Positions 4,592-22,203 of a stretch of 64,000 bases of DNA are shown piece by piece (positions within the stretch are counted from its first letter, which is position 1; the number at the start of each line of letters is the position of its first letter). This DNA is from Curtobacterium flaccumfaciens pv. betae (lineage in GTDB: Bacteria > Actinomycetota > Actinomycetes > Actinomycetales > Microbacteriaceae): the NCBI RefSeq assembly GCF_026241855.1, contig NZ_JAPJDC010000001.1:1798001-1862000 (forward strand), given 5' to 3'. Position numbers and translations under genes: made by a program. A model generated the notes under the pieces. It saw only the letters and a list, made by a program, of their open reading frames with translations. It searched no databases and had not been told where the DNA came from.

Positions 4592-5376
4592 GCTTCCGTC
4601 TCGCCTTCGTCGTCGGTGTCGGTCTCGGCTTCGCCGTCTGCCGGGAGGCCCGGGTCGTCCCCGTCGGTCGGCTCGCCACCCGGGGCGGTCGCCTCACCCT
4701 GCGCGGTGGTGGTCCGCAGCCAGGCGTCCAGTTCGAGCAGGCGCTCCAGGGGGAGCAGCACCTCGACGACGCTCGCCACCCGGAAACGGTCCGGGTCGGA
4801 GGTGCGGATCAGGATGCGTGCGGTCACGAGACGCTCGATCGCTTTGGCGACCCGGCCCTCGTCGCGGGTGCGGTCGGTCGCGGTCGCCGGACGGAAGCCC
4901 GCCACGTGCCCGAGGATCTCGGACCGGTCGACGACGACCTGGTCCGGGCCCGGTCGGGCGTCGGCGCGCAGGCGCATCCGCAGGTAGACGAGGACGATCG
5001 TCTCCTCGCGGGTGTACGGCAGGTCGCGGAGCAGGGTCGGGAACGTGCGGCGCTGGCTCTCCGACCGGGCCTGGCGCTTCCACGCGACCTCGCGGTCACG
5101 GTCGACGTGCAACTCGAGGAACAGGTCGTTCAGGCGGGACCGCAGCTGGTACTCGGCGTCGAGGACCGCACGCCACTCGTCGGGGTGCGTGCGGGAGCTG
5201 ACGTACGAGTGCCGCAGCAGGGCCACCAGGGCGCGTCGCTGGTGCTCGTCGAGCCGGCCCTCGTCGCCCTCGAAGAGGGCGAAGCTGGACTCGTCACGCT
5301 CGTCGTCCTGCATCACGGATGCGGGGTCGTCGTAGGGGACCGTCTCGTCGACCGGTGCCGGCGTCGTGTCGCTCAC
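4588..5376 (-). CDS. jetB: JetB/MksE-like protein (DUF4194)
   Basis: The small winged-helix (kite-like) subunit that bridges JetA and the JetC ATPase in Wadjet complexes. The product is 262 aa, with an acidic N-terminal tail and an acidic, Gly/Pro-rich C-terminal tail flanking the conserved core (residues about 45-215; RDLPYTREETIVLVYLRMRL and RVAKAIERLVTARIL are visible). The GTG at 5376 was chosen because it overlaps the jetA stop (GTGA) and has AGGAGG just upstream; a longer stop-free extension upstream lies in the jetA antiphase and is spurious. Its stop overlaps the jetC ATG. Identification rests on the core sequence and on its place between jetA-like and jetC-like genes. Confidence 0.8.
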   Translation of the reverse strand: MSDTTPAPVDETVPYDDPASVMQDDERDESSFALFEGDEGRLDEHQRRALVALLRHSYVSSRTHPDEWRAVLDAEYQLRSRLNDLFLELHVDRDREVAWKRQARSESQRRTFPTLLRDLPYTREETIVLVYLRMRLRADARPGPDQVVVDRSEILGHVAGFRPATATDRTRDEGRVAKAIERLVTARILIRTSDPDRFRVASVVEVLLPLERLLELDAWLRTTTAQGEATAPGGEPTDGDDPGLPADGEAETDTDDEGETEA

Positions 5377-15332: not shown

Positions 15333-15827
15333 ATGGAACAGCACACTGAACAGCGCACGCGACCGCGGGTCGTCACGATCGCCGTGGCCCTCTGGTGGGC
15401 GTCCGTCATCATCAGCCTCGTGGCCGCTGCGCCCGGCATGGTCGTGTCCATGCGCGAAGCCGGCGGCGCGATCATCGGGGCGTCGCTCGGGCTCGTCCTC
15501 GTCCTCGCCTGGTCGGCACTGTTCGTGTGGCTGGCGACGCGGATGGGACGAGGCTCCGGGAACGCGCGACTCTGGCTCGCCATCATCGCCGGGCTGACTG
15601 CCTGCAGCGAAGTGATCACCATCGCCACCGACGGCGTGGGCTGGAACCTCGTCGACACCGTTTGCGTCGTCGTCGCCGCGGTGCTCAGCTACCTGCCCAG
15701 TGCCCGTCCGTTCTTCCCGCGCGAGGAACGACGCTCGCGAGCAACGGAACCCCGCACCATCGGGTGGGACCCGACGACGGGCGAGCGCATCGTCGAGGCG
15801 CCCCCGTCGGCCGACCGCGCGCACTGA
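15333..15827 (+). CDS. Integral membrane protein, 164 aa
   Basis: Four hydrophobic segments (TIAVALWWASVIISLVAAAP; IIGASLGLVLVLAWSALFVW; LWLAIIAGLTACSEVITIA; VDTVCVVVAAVLSYLP) with cytoplasmic termini. The C-terminal tail (IGWDPTTGERIVEAPP) resembles tails of small actinobacterial membrane proteins of unknown role. GGGGGAG lies six bases before the ATG. Confidence 0.65.
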   Translation: MEQHTEQRTRPRVVTIAVALWWASVIISLVAAAPGMVVSMREAGGAIIGASLGLVLVLAWSALFVWLATRMGRGSGNARLWLAIIAGLTACSEVITIATDGVGWNLVDTVCVVVAAVLSYLPSARPFFPREERRSRATEPRTIGWDPTTGERIVEAPPSADRAH

Positions 15828-16073
15828 CGCTCGCCCCGGAAAGCGGCCGGAGAACGTGCGTTCCCCGTAGTGGGGGTACCGCCGGACGCTGCCGGATGGT
15901 TCCATTCAGAGGTCGGCATCCTCCGGGTGCCGCTCAGCCACGGACCGTCTTGCGTCGCAGTGAAGGTGGTCACCGCTGGTTACGGTGGCCACGAGGTGCC
16001 GTCGAGTCGATTCGGGTTCGACACGGCGGCGCCTCCCACACACCGGGGGACCGTCCGACCAGGAAGCAGCACC

Positions 16074-17126
16074 ATGCGATCGCTCGTCTACACCAGCACC
16101 CAGACCCGTCCGATCACGGATTCCGAACTCGCCCAGATCCTGGCGGTCGGTCGCGAGAAGAACACCCGGCTCGGCGTCACCGGCATGCTCGCGCACCGCG
16201 ACGACAACTGCATCGGGATCATCGAGGGCGAGGACGACGTCGTCCGGGAGCGCTTCGACCAGGTCCGAGCCGACCCGCGACACACGAACGTCCGGGTGCT
16301 GCTCGACGAGCCGATCACACAGCGCTCGTTCCCGGACTGGTCGATGGCGTTCCAGTCCCTCGACCCGCTGATGCACGACGTTCCGGGGTTCAGCGACCTG
16401 TTCAGCCCGGGTCGCCCGACCGACCTGGCGTTCGGGGCCTCCCGCGCTCGCGCACTCCTGGACTGGTTCCGCAAGCACCCGCTGGCACCACTGACGAACC
16501 AGAACGCCGCGGACGAGGAAGTCCCGCGCACGCGGGCGATCAACGGTGCGATCGCCGTCCTCCACGACGGCGGACTCTCACGCTTCTCGCTCGAGGGCGT
16601 CGCGTCCCGGTCGGGGATGCGGCAGGCCGAGATCCTCGAGCTCTTCCCCTCCGAGCACGCACTGCTGGCCGCCGCGGTGATGCGGTGGACCCGCGCGGTG
16701 TCGGCACCGCTGCTGCCGCTCGCCGGTGAGAAGGGCACGGTCGCGTTCCTGCACGCGCTGCTCTCCGCCCACGCCGAGGACCCGTCCCTCATGCGCCTGA
16801 TCGCCGCGACTCTCGCCATCTCGACCGACCCGTCGACGGACGGCGCCGACTACTACCGGTCCGCGTACCTGCAGTTCCGCGAGACCGTGCGCACCGCGCT
16901 GCAGGAGGACGTGCGCTCCGGCCGCGAACCGGCGACGATGGACCCGATCCGCGGGGCGCAGCAGCTGCTCGCCCTCTACGACGGCATCCGCCTGCAGGCG
17001 CTGCTGACGCCGGACACCGACGTCGTCGACGCGTTCGACCGTGCCGCCGCACGAATGCGCCGCGGCTGGTCCGAGCAGTACGAGGAGACCACCGTGTGGG
17101 ACATCTCCGCGCCGGTGGGGGACTGA
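16074..17126 (+). CDS. BLUF-domain protein fused to a TetR-type HTH
   Basis: A 350-aa fusion. Residues 1 to about 95 form a BLUF flavin domain: Tyr6 in LVYTS, Asn30 in REKNTRLGVTG, ADPRH and FPDWSMAF are at the expected places. The Gln that hydrogen-bonds the flavin (…FxQVLEG in the family) is Gly48 here (CIGIIEG), so normal BLUF photochemistry is doubtful. Residues about 150-200 form a TetR-like helix-turn-helix (AINGAIAVLHDGGLSRFSLE, then VASRSGMRQAEILELFPSEH), followed by an all-helical ligand/dimer domain. It is probably a light- or redox-responsive DNA-binding regulator. ATG 16074 has GGAAG upstream; a TTACGGT box about 90 bp upstream may be its -10. It is monocistronic, so its target is not obvious. 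Confidence 0.8.
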   Translation: MRSLVYTSTQTRPITDSELAQILAVGREKNTRLGVTGMLAHRDDNCIGIIEGEDDVVRERFDQVRADPRHTNVRVLLDEPITQRSFPDWSMAFQSLDPLMHDVPGFSDLFSPGRPTDLAFGASRARALLDWFRKHPLAPLTNQNAADEEVPRTRAINGAIAVLHDGGLSRFSLEGVASRSGMRQAEILELFPSEHALLAAAVMRWTRAVSAPLLPLAGEKGTVAFLHALLSAHAEDPSLMRLIAATLAISTDPSTDGADYYRSAYLQFRETVRTALQEDVRSGREPATMDPIRGAQQLLALYDGIRLQALLTPDTDVVDAFDRAAARMRRGWSEQYEETTVWDISAPVGD

Positions 17127-17129
17127 CCC

Positions 17130-17630
17130 TCAACGCACCAGACGCACGGTCCGGGGGATCGGTCCGAACGCCGACTCGGCACCGTCGGGTGCGAACCCGT
17201 TCCGCCGGTAGAAGGCGTGCGCCCGCGGGTTGTCCGCGGCCACCCACAGCGACGCCGGACGATCGGCGAGCACGGTGTCGAGGAGTGTCTGGCCTGCTCC
17301 GGTCCCGTGCGCACGGGCCAGGACGTAGAGCGTCGTCAGCTCCTCGGGGCGGACGGCATCCGGCTCGGGAGTCGACTGCGCCGCGGCGAACCCCACGACA
17401 CCGGTGCTGTCCAGGGCGACCTGGACGACTCCTCGGGCGCCAGGAATCGCGAGCGTCGACCGCCACATGTCGACCCGGCGACCCGCGTCGAACCACGGGC
17501 TCGTGTCCGGGTCGTCGACGAACCGACCGTACGTCTCTCGCCACGACACCGTGTGCACGTGGGCGATCGCATCCGCATCGGCGGGCGTCGCCGGCCGGAT
17601 CAGCGTCGAGACGTCGTCATCGTTCCCCAC
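17130..17630 (-). CDS. GNAT-family N-acetyltransferase
   Basis: A 166-aa acetyl-CoA-dependent acyltransferase. The acetyl-CoA loop is seen as ARAHGTGAGQTLLDTVL (the family's R/Q-x-x-G-x-G/A), preceded by LTTLYV. NPRAHAFYRRNGF is motif B, the usual C-terminal signature. GTG 17630 has a TACCCT box six bases upstream, so the transcript may be leaderless. The acceptor substrate cannot be told. It converges on the BLUF-TetR gene, leaving a three-base gap. Confidence 0.8.
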   Translation of the reverse strand: MGNDDDVSTLIRPATPADADAIAHVHTVSWRETYGRFVDDPDTSPWFDAGRRVDMWRSTLAIPGARGVVQVALDSTGVVGFAAAQSTPEPDAVRPEELTTLYVLARAHGTGAGQTLLDTVLADRPASLWVAADNPRAHAFYRRNGFAPDGAESAFGPIPRTVRLVR

Positions 17631-17636
17631 TCGGTC

Positions 17637-17642
17637 AGGGTA
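17637..17642 (-). promoter_or_regulatory. Likely -10 of a leaderless transcript
   Basis: TACCCT on the minus strand, six bases before the GTG at 17630. Confidence 0.4.
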
Positions 17643-17660
17643 GCGACCGGCGACCGGTGC

Positions 17661-17933
17661 TCAGAGCTGGAGGTCCAGGTCGAAGAACCCCGCACCGCCG
17701 AGGAACAGCGGCACGATGATCCCGAACATCGTCAGCGTCGCCCCGATCAGGATCGCCGCGAACGCGATGCCGTCGCCCCGCTCACCGGTCAGTCGCACGT
17801 CGCGCCGCACGATGAACCCGACGACGAGACCGCCGATCGGTGCCACGAACGCGGGGGCGCTCGGCGCGGTCTGGTCAGGAGCGAGGTCGGTCACGCCGGT
17901 CAGCCTCGGGGCGACGAGGATCCCTCCGCTCAC
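17661..17933 (-). CDS. Small membrane protein, 90 aa
   Basis: Two hydrophobic segments (FVAPIGGLVVGFIV and AFAAILIGATLTMFGIIVPLFLGG) with a charged loop between them. The GTG at 17933 overlaps the stop of the upstream DUF1345 gene (GTGA), so the two are translationally coupled. This supports the GTG and suggests the pair acts together in the membrane. No family was recognised. Confidence 0.6.
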   Translation of the reverse strand: MSGGILVAPRLTGVTDLAPDQTAPSAPAFVAPIGGLVVGFIVRRDVRLTGERGDGIAFAAILIGATLTMFGIIVPLFLGGAGFFDLDLQL

Positions 17934-18568
17934 CCCTGACCGAGGTTCGTCACGAGGTTGATGGCGACCGCGATCAGCACCGTCCCGAAGAAGTACGACA
18001 GCAGCGCGTGCGGCAACGCCTTCCGCCGGGTCTCGCTGTCATCCGGCTCGACCTCTGGTGCCGCGTACGACATGCCGATCGTGAAGGCGAAGTAGGCGAA
18101 GTCGCTGTAGGTCGGCCGCCCGTCCTGCTTGACGTCGAACCCACCGCCCCGGTGGTCGAGGAAGAACATCCGGGCGTACTTCAAGGCGTAGACCGTGTTG
18201 ACCAGCGCCCACGCCACCATCGTGCCGAGCACACCCAGGATGACCGCCGCGACCGAGGCCGGATCTCGCGCCTGGCTGGCTTCGCTCAGCGCCAGGACGA
18301 CGGCGGCGAGACTCGCGAAACAGGCCACGATGAGCGCGTTGTCACTGACCCGTGTCTCGGACTCCTCGCGTGCGAGACGCTCGGTGCCGTCGGCGTCCTG
18401 GCGCCAGCACTTGTGCCAGACCTGGACCAGCGCGATCAGGCCCGCCGTGCACCAGGCCGCGAGCGGCCCGAGGGACGGAGCCCCGGTGAAGGTCAACGCG
18501 ACCCCGACCAGGACCCCGATCCCCGCGATGACGAGCGCCCGGCGCGTGGAGAGTATCCGGTCGTTCAT
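17930..18568 (-). CDS. DUF1345 membrane protein
   Basis: A 212-aa membrane protein with about five hydrophobic segments. It shows the DUF1345 hallmark YSDFAYFAFTIGMSYA followed by a hydrophobic C-terminal segment (LLSYFFGTVLIAVAINLV). Function is unknown in the family. It is coupled to the small membrane protein at 17661. ATG 18568 has AAGG seven bases upstream, and the alcohol dehydrogenase gene ends about 50 bp before it on the same strand, so co-transcription is likely. Confidence 0.75.
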   Translation of the reverse strand: MNDRILSTRRALVIAGIGVLVGVALTFTGAPSLGPLAAWCTAGLIALVQVWHKCWRQDADGTERLAREESETRVSDNALIVACFASLAAVVLALSEASQARDPASVAAVILGVLGTMVAWALVNTVYALKYARMFFLDHRGGGFDVKQDGRPTYSDFAYFAFTIGMSYAAPEVEPDDSETRRKALPHALLSYFFGTVLIAVAINLVTNLGQG

Positions 18569-18619
18569 CGTCGTGCCTTCATGGTCGTTCCTTCCTCCTG
18601 TCCGCTGCGTGGTCGGTCG

Positions 18620-19795
18620 TCACACGCCGGGGGTGAAGACGGCGCGGACGCAGCCGTCGTCCTTGTTCTTGAACATCTCGTACCCGCGCGGCCCTTGCGA
18701 CAGTGGCATCACGTGCGTGGCGAGGTGCTCGGTGCTGATCTCTCCCGCGGCGATGCGGTCGAGGATCATCGGGATGTAGCGGTGCCCGTGCTGCTGCGCA
18801 CCGCGGACCGTCATGCCCTTGTTCATGATCGCGCCGAACGGGAACTTGTCGACGAGCCCACCGAAGACCCCGAGCGAGAACAGGCTGCCGCCCTTCCGGC
18901 ACGCGTAGATCGCCTCGCGCAGGGCGGTCGGCCGGTCGGTCTGCAACCGCAGCTGCTGCTTGGCCTGGTCGTACAGGTACAGCGGTCCGGTGCCGTGCGC
19001 TTCCATGCCGACGGCCTCGATGCAGATGTCGGGACCCCGACCGCCGGTGCGTTCCTTGAGTTCCGGGAGCACGGCGTCGCTCGTGTAGTCGAGCGTCTCG
19101 GCACCGATGTGCTCGCGCACCTGTCGCAGCCGTTCGGGCAGACGGTCGATCACGATCACCTGCTCGGCGCCGAGCAGCATCGCCGCACGAGCGGCCATCT
19201 GGCCCACACCACCGGCGCCCCACACTGCGACGGTGTCACCCGGTGTGATCCCGGCCAGGTCGGCTCCGGTCCACCCCGTGGGTGCGGCGTCGGAGGCGAA
19301 CAGGGCGGCCGTGTCGGACACGCCGTCGGGGACCGTGAACGCCCCCTGGTCGGCGTAGGGCACGCGGACGTACTCGGCGTGGCTGCCCGCGAACCCGCCG
19401 AGCGCGTGGCTGTAGGCGAAGCAGCCGCCGATCGACGACCCCCACATCGCCTCGGTCAAGCCCGGGTTCGGGTTGCCGTTGTCGCAGAGTGAGAACTGCC
19501 CGTGGGTGCAGTACCAGCACTGCCCGCAGGCGATGAACGAGCAGACGACGACCCGGTCGCCCACCTTGTGCTTCGTGACGGCCGATCCCGTCTCGACGAC
19601 CTCGCCCATGAACTCGTGCCCCAGGACGTCACCGGATCGCATGGTCGGGATGTACCCGCCGAGCAGGTGCAGGTCCGAGCCGCAGGTGGTGCTCAGACGC
19701 ACCTTCAGGATCACGTCGTGATCGTTGAGGATCTTCGGGTCCTCCACCGTCTCCACCGCGGTCTCGTTGACCCCGGTCCAACAGAGCGCCTTCAC
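18620..19795 (-). CDS. Zinc-dependent alcohol/formaldehyde dehydrogenase
   Basis: A 391-aa NAD(P)-dependent medium-chain dehydrogenase. Catalytic zinc ligands are seen in STTCGSDLH (Cys) and GHEFMGEVV (His-Glu), and the structural zinc Cys cluster is CGQCWYC...LC. The Rossmann motif is GAGGVG near residue 200. The long loops and the VEAVGMEAHG stretch resemble the glutathione-independent formaldehyde dehydrogenase-like subgroup. The GTG start overlaps the stop of the upstream gene (GTGA). It probably acts on short-chain aldehydes or alcohols; substrate not proven. Confidence 0.85.
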   Translation of the reverse strand: MKALCWTGVNETAVETVEDPKILNDHDVILKVRLSTTCGSDLHLLGGYIPTMRSGDVLGHEFMGEVVETGSAVTKHKVGDRVVVCSFIACGQCWYCTHGQFSLCDNGNPNPGLTEAMWGSSIGGCFAYSHALGGFAGSHAEYVRVPYADQGAFTVPDGVSDTAALFASDAAPTGWTGADLAGITPGDTVAVWGAGGVGQMAARAAMLLGAEQVIVIDRLPERLRQVREHIGAETLDYTSDAVLPELKERTGGRGPDICIEAVGMEAHGTGPLYLYDQAKQQLRLQTDRPTALREAIYACRKGGSLFSLGVFGGLVDKFPFGAIMNKGMTVRGAQQHGHRYIPMILDRIAAGEISTEHLATHVMPLSQGPRGYEMFKNKDDGCVRAVFTPGV

Positions 19796-20244
19796 AGCAC
19801 ACCCTCCTCGTTGCTCCGTTTCGTCGCCACGTCCACCAACGCGCCGGTGGGTGTGGCCTTCCGTCGGCCGTGGGGGACCGGATCCACCCGGAGCACCTCG
19901 CCGACCTCGATGAGTTGCTTCGCCTCACGCAGAGCGGCCCGCAGCCGACCCCGTGGGTCCGGGCCGCCGCCTCGGAACCGGGCACGGAGCTCGGTGCCAC
20001 GATCGCCGGGCGCGGGACGGGCCTCCACCTCGACGTCCTGCCCGAACGCCGTGAGCGGCGCGGGGATCCGCCCGCCTGGCAGCACCGCGTCCTGCCCGCG
20101 GTTCACCGTGACCGCGTGCCAGCCGGAACGCGGTTCGGCCAGCACCTTCCGTGCGGGCCCGGGTGCGCCGCGTCGGCGGCGCGAGACGACGACGCCGACG
20201 GCAGCCGTGACCATCGCAGCGGCGGCAAGGTTCCGGGCCCTCAT
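19792..20244 (-). CDS. Hypothetical protein coupled to the alcohol dehydrogenase
   Basis: A 150-aa protein with an N-terminal hydrophobic segment (ARNLAAAAMVTAAVGVVVSRRRR), probably a membrane anchor. The soluble domain that follows (GWHAVTVNR..., TELRARFRGGGPDPRGRLRAALREAKQLIEVGEVLRVD) loosely recalls SRPBCC/cyclase-type proteins that sit beside such dehydrogenases. ATG 20244 was chosen because the frame upstream enters the intergenic region. Its stop overlaps the dehydrogenase GTG, so the two are made together. Confidence 0.6.
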   Translation of the reverse strand: MRARNLAAAAMVTAAVGVVVSRRRRGAPGPARKVLAEPRSGWHAVTVNRGQDAVLPGGRIPAPLTAFGQDVEVEARPAPGDRGTELRARFRGGGPDPRGRLRAALREAKQLIEVGEVLRVDPVPHGRRKATPTGALVDVATKRSNEEGVL

Positions 20245-20486
20245 CGTGGTGTCCCAGCGAGGAGTCGGTGGGCAGCGGACGCGTTCGCGCCACACCGCCG
20301 GGGATTCGTGTGTTCCATCGCGGCCTCCATGAGTCGCATCGGTGCGGATCAACGGGACGGGAGCGACGACCACGCGATCGTGCCGGTCGGGACCACGGAG
20401 TCGCTCCTGTCGATCCACGATGAGCGTGGCCTCCATGGCGCCGTCCCGGGTTGTCCGCGACGCGCTGCGGCAGGTGACGGCAGCGA

Positions 20487-20534
20487 GACGGACGGGAGGC
20501 CCGGTGCCAGCTGGCACCGGGCCTCCCGTCCGTC
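20487..20534. terminator. Perfect 48-bp palindrome, bidirectional terminator
   Basis: The arms read outward from CCAGCTGG and include GGGAGGCCCGGTGCC and its exact complement. It stands 14 bp after the katA stop and upstream of the minus-strand gene at 20244. Between 20245 and 20486 no gene was seen; that stretch should hold the promoter of the 20244 gene. It is a sister of the palindrome at 37507. Confidence 0.8.
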
Positions 20535-20547
20535 CTGGGGTCGCGTC

Positions 20548-22203
20548 TCAGACGCGCACGGCGCGTTCGTCGGGGACGCAGTGCGTCATCATCAGGCCCT
20601 CGACGTCGCGGGAGCCGTTGTGGCCGAGGTTCGCCAGGCGGGCGAGCTCGTCGTCGCTGAGCGTCTGTGACTGCAGCGGGGGCAGGTCCTTGACCTCGTC
20701 GAGGGTGATGCCGAGCCCTTCGCCGACACGACGACCCAGGTCGTCCTCGACCATGTAGAAGTGCCAGAGCATGCGCTCCTGCACCGGACGGGCCGCCTGC
20801 GAGATGAGGTCGACGAAGTTCGCGACGAGGTCGTCGCGCTCCCAGTCCTGCAGGAGCAGGTACCGCTGGCCGGCCTGGGTGTAGTCGTTCGTCCGGGGGA
20901 TCCGCTTGCGGGTGAGCCGCCCGACGATCTCCGGTCCCTGGTCGTCGTGGGTCGGGTACTCCGCCTCGCGCAGGCCGCCGGTGATCGACGGCTCGTAGTT
21001 GACGTGCGGGTTCTCGCCGCCGTGGTCCTGGTGGTACGCCATCTGTCCGTCGCGCTGGTTGGTCGCGACGGCGCCGTTCTTCGGGGCGTTCACCGGCAGC
21101 TGCAGGTAGTTCGGGCCGACGCGGTAGCGCTGCGTGTCCGAGTACGAGAACGTGCGGCCGACGAGCATCTTGTCGTCGGAGAAGTCCAGGCCGTCGACGA
21201 GCACGCCGGTGCCGAAGGACAGCTGCTCGTTCTCGGCGAAGTGGTTCGTGACGTTGCGGTTCAGGACCATCTTGCCGACGGGCTTCGGCGGGAACTCGTT
21301 CTCCGGCCACACCTTCGTGTCGTCGAGCGGGTCGAAGTCGAGCTCCGGGTGCTCGTGGTCGTCCATGAGCTGCACACGGAGCTCCCACTCGGGGTACTCA
21401 CCACGCTCGATCGCCTCGTACAGGTCCTTCGACGCGTGCCCGAGGTCGCCGGCCTGCACGGCTGCGGCGTCGGCCTCGGTCATCGACGACACACCCACCG
21501 ACGGGATCCAGTGGTACTTGACGAGCTTGGTGTCACCGTCTGCGTTCACCCACTTGTAGGTGTTCACGCCGAAGCCCTGCTGGGTGCGGTAGTTCGCGGG
21601 GATGCCGCGTGGGCTGAACAGGTTGACGAGCATGTGCATCGACTCGGGGGTCTGCGACATGAAGTCGAAGATGCGCGCCGGCTCCTGCCGGAAGGTCACG
21701 GGGTCGGGCTTGAGGGAGTGGATGACGTCGGGGAACTTGATGGCGTCGCGGATGAAGAAGACGCCGAGGTTGTTGCCGACGAGGTCCCAGTTGCCGTCCT
21801 CGGTGTAGAACTTCACGGCGAAGCCGCGCGGGTCGCGGGCGGCCTCGGAGGAGTCACGGCCGCCGATCACGGTGGAGAACCGGATCGCCAGGTCGGTGCG
21901 CTTGCCCGGCTCCTGGAACAGCTTCGCGCGGGTGTACTGCGCGATTGGTTCGTCACCCCACGCGCCGGTGGCCTCGAAGTACCCGAAGGCGACCGCACCG
22001 CGGGCGTGCACGACCCGCTCCGGGATCCGTTCGCGGTCGAAGTGGCTGATCTTCTCGAGGAACTGGTAGTTCTCGAGCGTCGCCGGGCCACGGGCTCCGA
22101 CGGTGCGCTGGTTCTGGTTGTCGTACACGGGGTGGCCCTGGCGGTTCGTCAGGATGCGGCGGTCGTCGCCCTCGGCGGGCGGTTGGCTGGAGACGTCGGT
22201 CAT
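20548..22203 (-). CDS. katA: Monofunctional haem catalase
   Basis: Disproportionates hydrogen peroxide in the cytoplasm; 551 aa, slightly longer than small-subunit catalases because of an added C-terminus. The distal His is His66 (VVHARG) and the distal Asn is Asn144 in [10 protein letters not shown]. The proximal haem ligand Tyr is in [13 protein letters not shown] 22203 has AGAGAGGACGAG upstream. A 25-bp tandem repeat lies about 125-245 bp upstream and may be its regulatory region. A strong palindrome terminates the gene. Confidence 0.95.

What the first reader, a model, noticed from the sequence alone, without database searches (positions are those of the whole stretch)
16074..17126. BLUF photoreceptor domain fused to a TetR-type DNA-binding protein, with the key flavin Gln replaced by Gly
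The sequence shows an N-terminal BLUF domain (Tyr6, Asn30, ADPRH, FPDWSM) joined to a TetR-like helix-turn-helix and helical domain. BLUF signalling in known proteins depends on a Gln next to the flavin; here the aligned residue is Gly48 (CIGIIEG). One-chain BLUF-TetR regulators are, to my knowledge, not a standard architecture. It could be a direct light-controlled repressor with altered chemistry, a redox sensor, or a domain reused for dimer control.
Basis: partly seen in the sequence, partly recalled or inferred. Interest (0 to 1): 0.75.

Follow-up and report, generated by a model that had tools for sequence, protein, structure and literature searches.

The report
BLUF-TetR regulators with rebuilt flavin pocket
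A family of bacterial gene regulators joins a blue-light-sensor-type domain to a TetR-type DNA-binding protein, but has swapped the amino acid thought essential for sensing light, so it probably reads its flavin in a different way.

Summary
Window 16074-17126 (+) encodes a 350-aa BLUF-TetR fusion. The BLUF part and the TetR C-terminal part pass Pfam cut-offs; the TetR_N helix-turn-helix is weak here (E 0.0033) but better in some relatives, and both folds appear in the model. Gly48 sits ungapped at the flavin Gln of BlrB and OaPAC.

It is a family. 26 of 36 Curtobacterium genomes searched carry full-length fusions; a Frigoribacterium plasmid carries one. Gly48 is in 56 of 56 fusions compared; Gln is in 69 of 69 unfused BLUFs, the fusions' nearest one included. 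The fusions form one clade, joined at the natural end of a short BLUF. Phe46, on the same face of the same strand, is Cys in 48 of 56 fusions, exactly those keeping the photoactive Tyr6.

Both halves are under purifying selection. Best reading: a one-component flavin-dependent regulator whose Gln-based photoswitch is gone, reporting a flavin state in another way. Whether light is still the signal cannot be told from sequence.

The parts
16074..17126 (+). BLUF-TetR fusion gene, 350 aa, ATG start, TGA stop
   Evidence: the N-terminus starting at this Met is shared by close relatives
16077..16349 (+). BLUF domain, residues 2-92
16089..16091 (+). Tyr6, the electron and proton donor of BLUF photochemistry
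   Evidence: TAC; Tyr in 48 of 56 fusions, Phe in 8
16161..16163 (+). Asn30, flavin-binding Asn
   Evidence: 56 of 56 fusions
16209..16211 (+). Cys46, in place of Phe of most canonical BLUFs, two residues before Gly48 on the same strand
   Evidence: Cys in 48 of 56 fusions; Phe 60 and Ile 9 of 69 unfused BLUFs
16215..16217 (+). Gly48 (GGG), at the column of the flavin Gln
   Evidence: Gly in 56 of 56 fusions, Gln in 69 of 69 unfused BLUFs
16338..16346 (+). Trp89-Ser90-Met91, the beta5 signal-output strand
   Evidence: Trp 56 of 56, Met 52 of 56 fusions
16425..16475 (+). helix 118-134, the C-terminal helix also found at the end of short BLUFs
   Evidence: DSSP of model; comparison with BLUF-only C-termini
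16482..16520 (+). flexible joint, residues 137-149, pLDDT under 50
16524..16676 (+). TetR helix-turn-helix region, residues 151-201 (helices 151-166, 173-180, 184-190)
   Evidence: TetR_N 17.6 bits, below cut-off; model helices; fold matches
16689..17093 (+). TetR C-terminal dimer and ligand domain, residues 206-340
   Evidence: TetR_C_6 E 8.7e-9 over residues 224-316
15966..15992 (.). candidate operator: 27-bp dyad GTGGTCACCG-7-CGGTGGCCAC upstream of the gene
   Evidence: arms 8 to 10 of 10 complementary in the 7 close relatives compared, with paired changes in F05; best site in the genome, 1 mismatch, the other 10 places have 3
16006..16022 (.). second, weaker dyad GTCGA-7-TCGAC
   Evidence: not tested further

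Best explanation
It is a one-component transcription regulator made by joining a short BLUF protein, at its natural C-terminal helix, to a BetI-like TetR protein. Shown: the architecture, one clade of fusions, fixed Gly48, and purifying selection on both halves. Inferred: the BLUF part still binds flavin, because Asn30 and Trp89 always, and Met91 and Tyr6 mostly, are kept; the canonical Gln hydrogen-bond photoswitch is absent; the rebuilt pocket (Tyr6, Cys46, Gly48) instead reports a flavin state, such as a reduced or radical form produced by light or by cell redox, or its occupancy; the change passes through beta5 and helix 118-134 to the TetR dimer and alters operator binding. The kept TetR C-terminal domain may add a second, small-molecule input. 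The likeliest target of this copy is its own promoter (dyad at 15966-15992). In some related copies a SpoIIE-type phosphatase gene lies next door, so stress signalling is a plausible output there.
For: Profiles and folds for both domains. Gly48, Asn30 and Trp89 in 56 of 56 fusions, Met91 in 52 of 56. Codon 48 uses all four Gly codons (GGC 28, GGG 25, GGA 1, GGT 1 of 55), so Gly is kept while the third base drifts. Median dN/dS over five groups (F48-F49, F14 and the Frigoribacterium copy left out): BLUF 0.08-0.26, HTH 0.12-0.44, C-terminal domain 0.09-0.25. Fusions one clade, 100/98; the next branch, 85/94, is a Gln-bearing BLUF-only protein of the genus (midpoint root). Literature: removing the Gln stops formation of the signalling state but Slr1694 Q50A still forms a short-lived neutral flavin semiquinone (PMC3915823, passages); Q50A and Q63E are described as locked pseudo-lit (PMC6695109, passages).
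Against: No flavin binding, DNA binding or light effect has been measured. The HTH evolves fastest of the parts and scores below the TetR_N cut-off in this copy. Eight fusions lost Tyr6 and have no Cys46 but keep Gly48, so part of the family works without either. In BlsA the Gln mutant Q51A was insoluble on overexpression, which the authors link to flavin binding (PMC6695109, passages), so a BLUF without Gln might bind flavin poorly. Natural LOV receptors without their Gln still signal light (PMC9098866, abstract and passages), so loss of Gln need not mean loss of light sensing. The SpoIIE neighbour is seen in 11 of 55 fusions and not here.
Confidence: 0.5

Rival explanations
1. It is still a direct blue-light repressor: Tyr6 transfers an electron and proton to the excited flavin, and a water or backbone group in the space left by Gln carries the signal to beta5 and the TetR part.
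For: Tyr6 kept in 48 of 56 fusions, Trp89 in 56 and Met91 in 52. LOV receptors without their Gln, a natural one included, keep light signalling, with water proposed to stand in (PMC9098866, abstract and passages). The genus lives on sunlit surfaces (recalled).
Against: In BLUF proteins removal of the Gln prevents the signalling state (PMC3915823, passages). Eight fusions have Phe6, and Tyr to Phe also abolishes the red-shifted state (same paper).
Confidence: 0.25
2. The BLUF part is light-blind and frozen; it serves only as a dimer or scaffold element, and the TetR ligand domain is the sole sensor.
For: The TetR C-terminal domain is conserved (dN/dS 0.09-0.25, as low as the BLUF or slightly lower in three of five groups) and shared with unfused paralogues. 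Gln mutants of known BLUFs are described as locked (PMC6695109, passages). The Phe6 fusions fall in two lineages.
Against: Most fusions keep the other known flavin-pocket residues over large divergence, and the BLUF half has the highest mean identity of the four parts in all five groups; a mere scaffold would not need that (inference).
Confidence: 0.2
3. Artefact: a frame-joining error, or a chance HTH-like stretch.
For: TetR_N is under its cut-off in this copy.
Against: 55 distinct fusions from many assemblies, selection on the whole reading frame, full TetR fold.
Confidence: 0.01

Closest known systems
Short BLUF proteins and BLUF domains (BlrB, Slr1694, Tll0078, AppA, OaPAC)
   Same: Fold, Tyr6, Asn30, Trp89, Met91
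   Different: Gln to Gly and Phe to Cys on the flavin-facing strand; fused to TetR
   Same: 56% identical, next branch to all fusions
   Different: Keeps Gln48 and Phe46; 137 aa, ends after the C-terminal helix
BetI/TetR-type regulators and the unfused TetR paralogues of this genome (e.g. G000:C1:549838)
   Same: TetR fold, TetR_C_6; 36-43% identity for the three closest in this genome
   Different: No BLUF; own recognition-helix sequences
Engineered TetR-LOV repressors (pLITR, pLATR)
   Same: A flavin photoreceptor domain on a TetR protein (PMC9614035, passages)
   Different: Man-made, LOV not BLUF, fused at the C-terminus of truncated TetR; here natural and N-terminal
[quoted passage not shown]
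   Same: A flavin photoreceptor fold without its Gln, occurring in nature (PMC9098866, abstract and passages)
   Different: Replacements there are mostly Leu or Ile; LOV chemistry rests on a Cys adduct; no such BLUF set was seen in the searches made
EL222 (LOV-HTH)
   Same: One-component flavin regulator with an HTH (PMC4844311, passages)
   Different: LOV domain and another HTH type (type recalled)

Membership tests
BLUF photoreceptors | BLUF profile and fold | tested here: met
BLUF photoreceptors | conserved Tyr donor | tested here: met
   Tyr6; 48 of 56 fusions
BLUF photoreceptors | conserved flavin Asn | tested here: met
   Asn30; 56 of 56
BLUF photoreceptors | conserved Gln of the hydrogen-bond switch | tested here: not met
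   Gly48; 56 of 56 fusions
BLUF photoreceptors | flavin bound and reversible red-shift in blue light | not testable with these tools
   needs purified protein
TetR family | TetR_N helix-turn-helix profile | tested here: inconclusive
   17.6 bits against cut-off 24 in this copy; 27 of 46 fusions at E 0.01 or better
TetR family | TetR C-terminal domain and overall TetR fold | tested here: met
TetR family | binds a palindromic operator | not testable with these tools
   candidate dyad at 15966-15992 only
LOV-like cysteinyl-flavin photoreceptors (works-like question) | Cys in reach of flavin C4a | not testable with these tools
   Cys46 has the parity of residue 48 on model strand 45-52; no coordinates were available

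The most novel reading that the evidence does not exclude
The fusions use a new flavin chemistry inside the BLUF fold: Tyr6 and Cys46, paired in 48 of 56 proteins and both absent in the other 8, act on the flavin in the space opened by Gln48 to Gly, giving a thiol-flavin adduct or thiol-coupled radical switch (light- or redox-driven) that controls a TetR repressor.
Probability: 0.18. Interest if true: 0.87.

Novelty: new variant of a known kind. Interest (0 to 1): 0.63.

Why it matters
The role of the flavin Gln is the central debate of BLUF photochemistry. A natural clade that has lost it, kept the rest of the known pocket under selection, and is wired to an easily assayed repressor, with a Gln-bearing near relative in the same genus, makes the question directly testable. 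It would also be a natural counterpart of the engineered light-controlled TetR repressors.

Tried and rejected
Conserved neighbourhood as a guide to function: rejected for this copy. In the window and 50 loci compared, only close relatives share neighbours and no gene is shared across the family, fitting a gene that moves or is duplicated, up to five copies in one genome (G001). SpoIIE link: seen for 11 of 55 fusions (F50-F55, F45-F47, F16, F30) and not for this one; 13 of the 44 misses had under 2 kb of flank on a side, of which this genome's copy is cleared by a whole-genome search.

Another Gln taking over: Gln94 is in 48 of 48 Tyr6 fusions but sits on the opposite parity of beta5 from Trp89 and Met91; a register shift cannot be excluded. 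Gln10 is not kept in F42-F47.

A shared regulon by the 27-bp dyad: not supported. Ten other places in the genome match it, all with 3 mismatches; but the reversed control had none, so some could be real sites, and they were not examined. The core has one further site at 2 mismatches, reversed control none. The repeat finder did not report the dyad at the settings used; it was seen by eye and checked. The CCCG(AA/TT) promoter element was found by looking and then counted on the same data, and is not upstream of this gene; a related pattern searched in this genome gave nothing.

Restriction to Curtobacterium: first concluded, then corrected by the Frigoribacterium plasmid. The count of unfused BLUFs was corrected from 70 sequences to 69 genes, two being pieces of one.

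Papers: no description of a natural BLUF-TetR or of a Gln-less BLUF was seen in the searches (listings and starts of abstracts; open-access library only; one search listed 20 of 21). PMC4630285, PMC10634658 and PMC8591293 were searched for terms without a useful passage.

Full report

The Gln column. The alignment to OaPAC starts at residue 1 and has no gap up to residue 79; FFQILEG of OaPAC lies over CIGIIEG. So Gly48 is at the Gln, Tyr6 at the Tyr and Asn30 at the Asn (their roles in OaPAC are recalled).

A family. A scan of genome contigs (84,980 species) with short peptide patterns of this protein, which reaches close relatives only, a search of 59 related genomes and 20 further stretches gave 55 distinct fusions. 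In the genus, 26 of 36 genomes, the window's own included, have a near full-length match (E 2e-87 or better); the best match of the other 10 is the TetR part alone, and two of those 10 are only 65% and 73% complete. Of 299 genomes drawn from the family, a full-length match is listed for 3 of the 7 genus members listed and for no other genus (the list of matches is cut at about E 2e-18); of 394 drawn from the class, only for the window's own. But among 72,556 plasmids, 8 records carry it over 80% or more of its length: 7 Curtobacterium and one Frigoribacterium, 65% identical. The latter's annotated gene starts at about residue 91 and so leaves out nearly all of the BLUF domain; read from the conserved Met it has Tyr6, Asn30, Cys46, Gly48 and Trp89. 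Named loci identify the genus as Curtobacterium.

Fusion and Gly go together. Of 56 fusions compared (55 plus Frigoribacterium), 56 have Gly48. Of 69 distinct unfused BLUFs (22 from loci of the family, the rest from other Actinomycetota, Verrucomicrobiota, Bacteroidota and Pseudomonadota), 69 have Gln. These 69 were found by similarity to this protein or by sampling its phylum (BLUF in 8 of 296 genomes), so they are not an even sample of all BLUFs. In a tree of 83 BLUF domains (26 of the 55 fusions, 57 others), the 26 form one clade (100/98), and the next branch is an unfused, Gln-bearing BLUF from the same genus (85/94); the root is at the midpoint and the tool warns of few columns. That protein ends just after the helix that precedes the joint in the fusions. 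The simplest account is that a short BLUF and a TetR gene were joined once and that Gln was replaced on the same branch; the order of the two events is unknown.

More of the pocket changed. On strand 45-52, position 46 has the same parity as 48. It is Phe in 60 and Ile in 9 of 69 unfused BLUFs and Cys in 48 of 56 fusions; the 8 without Cys (6 Val, 2 Ala) are the same 8 in which Tyr6 is Phe. On the full-length tree (55 rows, F14 left out as incomplete) these 8 fall in two groups, F48-F49 and F50-F55, each on a long stem, and none of 200 bootstrap trees puts them in one. With only two events the Tyr6-Cys46 pairing is suggestive, not proven. Position 40 is Ala in 48 of 48 Tyr6 fusions against mostly Leu or Val in the unfused, probably on the other face of the sheet (inference).

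Selection. Median pairwise dN/dS in five groups is 0.08-0.26 for the BLUF, 0.12-0.44 for the HTH and 0.09-0.25 for the C-terminal part (simple Nei-Gojobori on high-G+C genes, so approximate). The BLUF has the highest mean identity of four parts in all five groups, and the HTH the lowest identity and highest dN/dS. Codon 48 varies in its third base but always reads Gly. Both halves look like working parts, and the DNA-reading part changes fastest, as expected if copies have gained different operators; weaker constraint is the other reading. The recognition region is variable, and the unfused TetR paralogues also lack the usual TetR signature there (by eye; usual signature recalled).

Surroundings. 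This copy lies between a small hypothetical gene (15333-15827, no Pfam match) and, converging on it, genes for a GNAT acetyltransferase, a DUF4190-like protein (below cut-off), a DUF1345 protein, a zinc alcohol dehydrogenase and, 3.4 kb on, a catalase. Only close relatives share neighbours. Eleven of 55 fusions have a SpoIIE-type phosphatase gene within 2 kb: F50-F55 directly upstream on the same strand, F45-F47 divergently, F16 upstream, F30 downstream (four of these genes checked by Pfam). Five genomes searched have 3 to 6 such genes over the cut-off. An unfused TetR paralogue of this genome also has one beside it. A 27-bp dyad ends 81 bases before the start codon; its arms pair in 8 to 10 of 10 places in the seven close relatives compared, with two paired changes in F05. 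It is the best site in the genome, with 1 mismatch; ten others have 3, against none for the reversed control. This suggests control of its own gene; more targets are not excluded.

How it may work. In known BLUFs, light moves an electron and proton from Tyr to flavin and the Gln then turns or tautomerises; without Gln the signalling state does not form, though Slr1694 Q50A makes a semiquinone for nanoseconds (PMC3915823, passages). Gln mutants are described as pseudo-lit, and one, BlsA Q51A, became insoluble (PMC6695109, passages). So the canonical switch is very probably gone. Since the rest of the known pocket is kept, I think flavin is still bound and read in another way. The natural Gln-less LOV receptors (PMC9098866, abstract and passages) warn that light may still be the signal.

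Verdict. Real, coherent and not described in the papers found by the searches made; a new variant of a known kind (flavin-domain one-component regulators). The architecture alone is a modest surprise; a fixed, Gln-less, mostly Cys-bearing BLUF clade is the stronger part. Function rests on inference.

Noticed in passing
G000:C1, 15 sites (loci L175-L189): CCCGTTCNGGGG occurs 15 times in this genome and its reversed control never. Sites lie before a TetR paralogue of this family, an unfused BLUF, a MarR and an AraC-type gene; at least three look to be inside genes. A possible shared regulator site.
   Followed up: partly
upstream of BLUF genes in related loci: CCCG(AA or TT)N2-4GGG within 130 bases upstream of 19 of 55 fusions and 11 of 22 unfused BLUF genes of the family, against 12 of 619 control genes; pattern chosen after looking.
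   Followed up: partly
L067 5204-7002, L118, L128, L130, L048 and others: SpoIIE-type phosphatase genes beside 11 of 55 fusions, in F50-F55 directly upstream.
   Followed up: yes
L126 (G009:C1:832105-832512): A 65% match to residues 195-330 only, looking like the remnant of a fusion gene.
   Followed up: no
L123 and L127: Fusions F48/F49 are followed at once by an overlapping TetR-like gene on the same strand.
   Followed up: no
L201 4971-6059: The Frigoribacterium plasmid annotation starts the gene at 5271, leaving out nearly all of the BLUF domain.
   Followed up: yes
G000:C1:2974867-2976468: Two unfused Gln-bearing BLUF genes lie about 1 kb apart on opposite strands.
   Followed up: no
window 17130-22203: GNAT, DUF4190-like, DUF1345, zinc alcohol dehydrogenase and catalase genes on the minus strand beside the fusion.
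   Followed up: no
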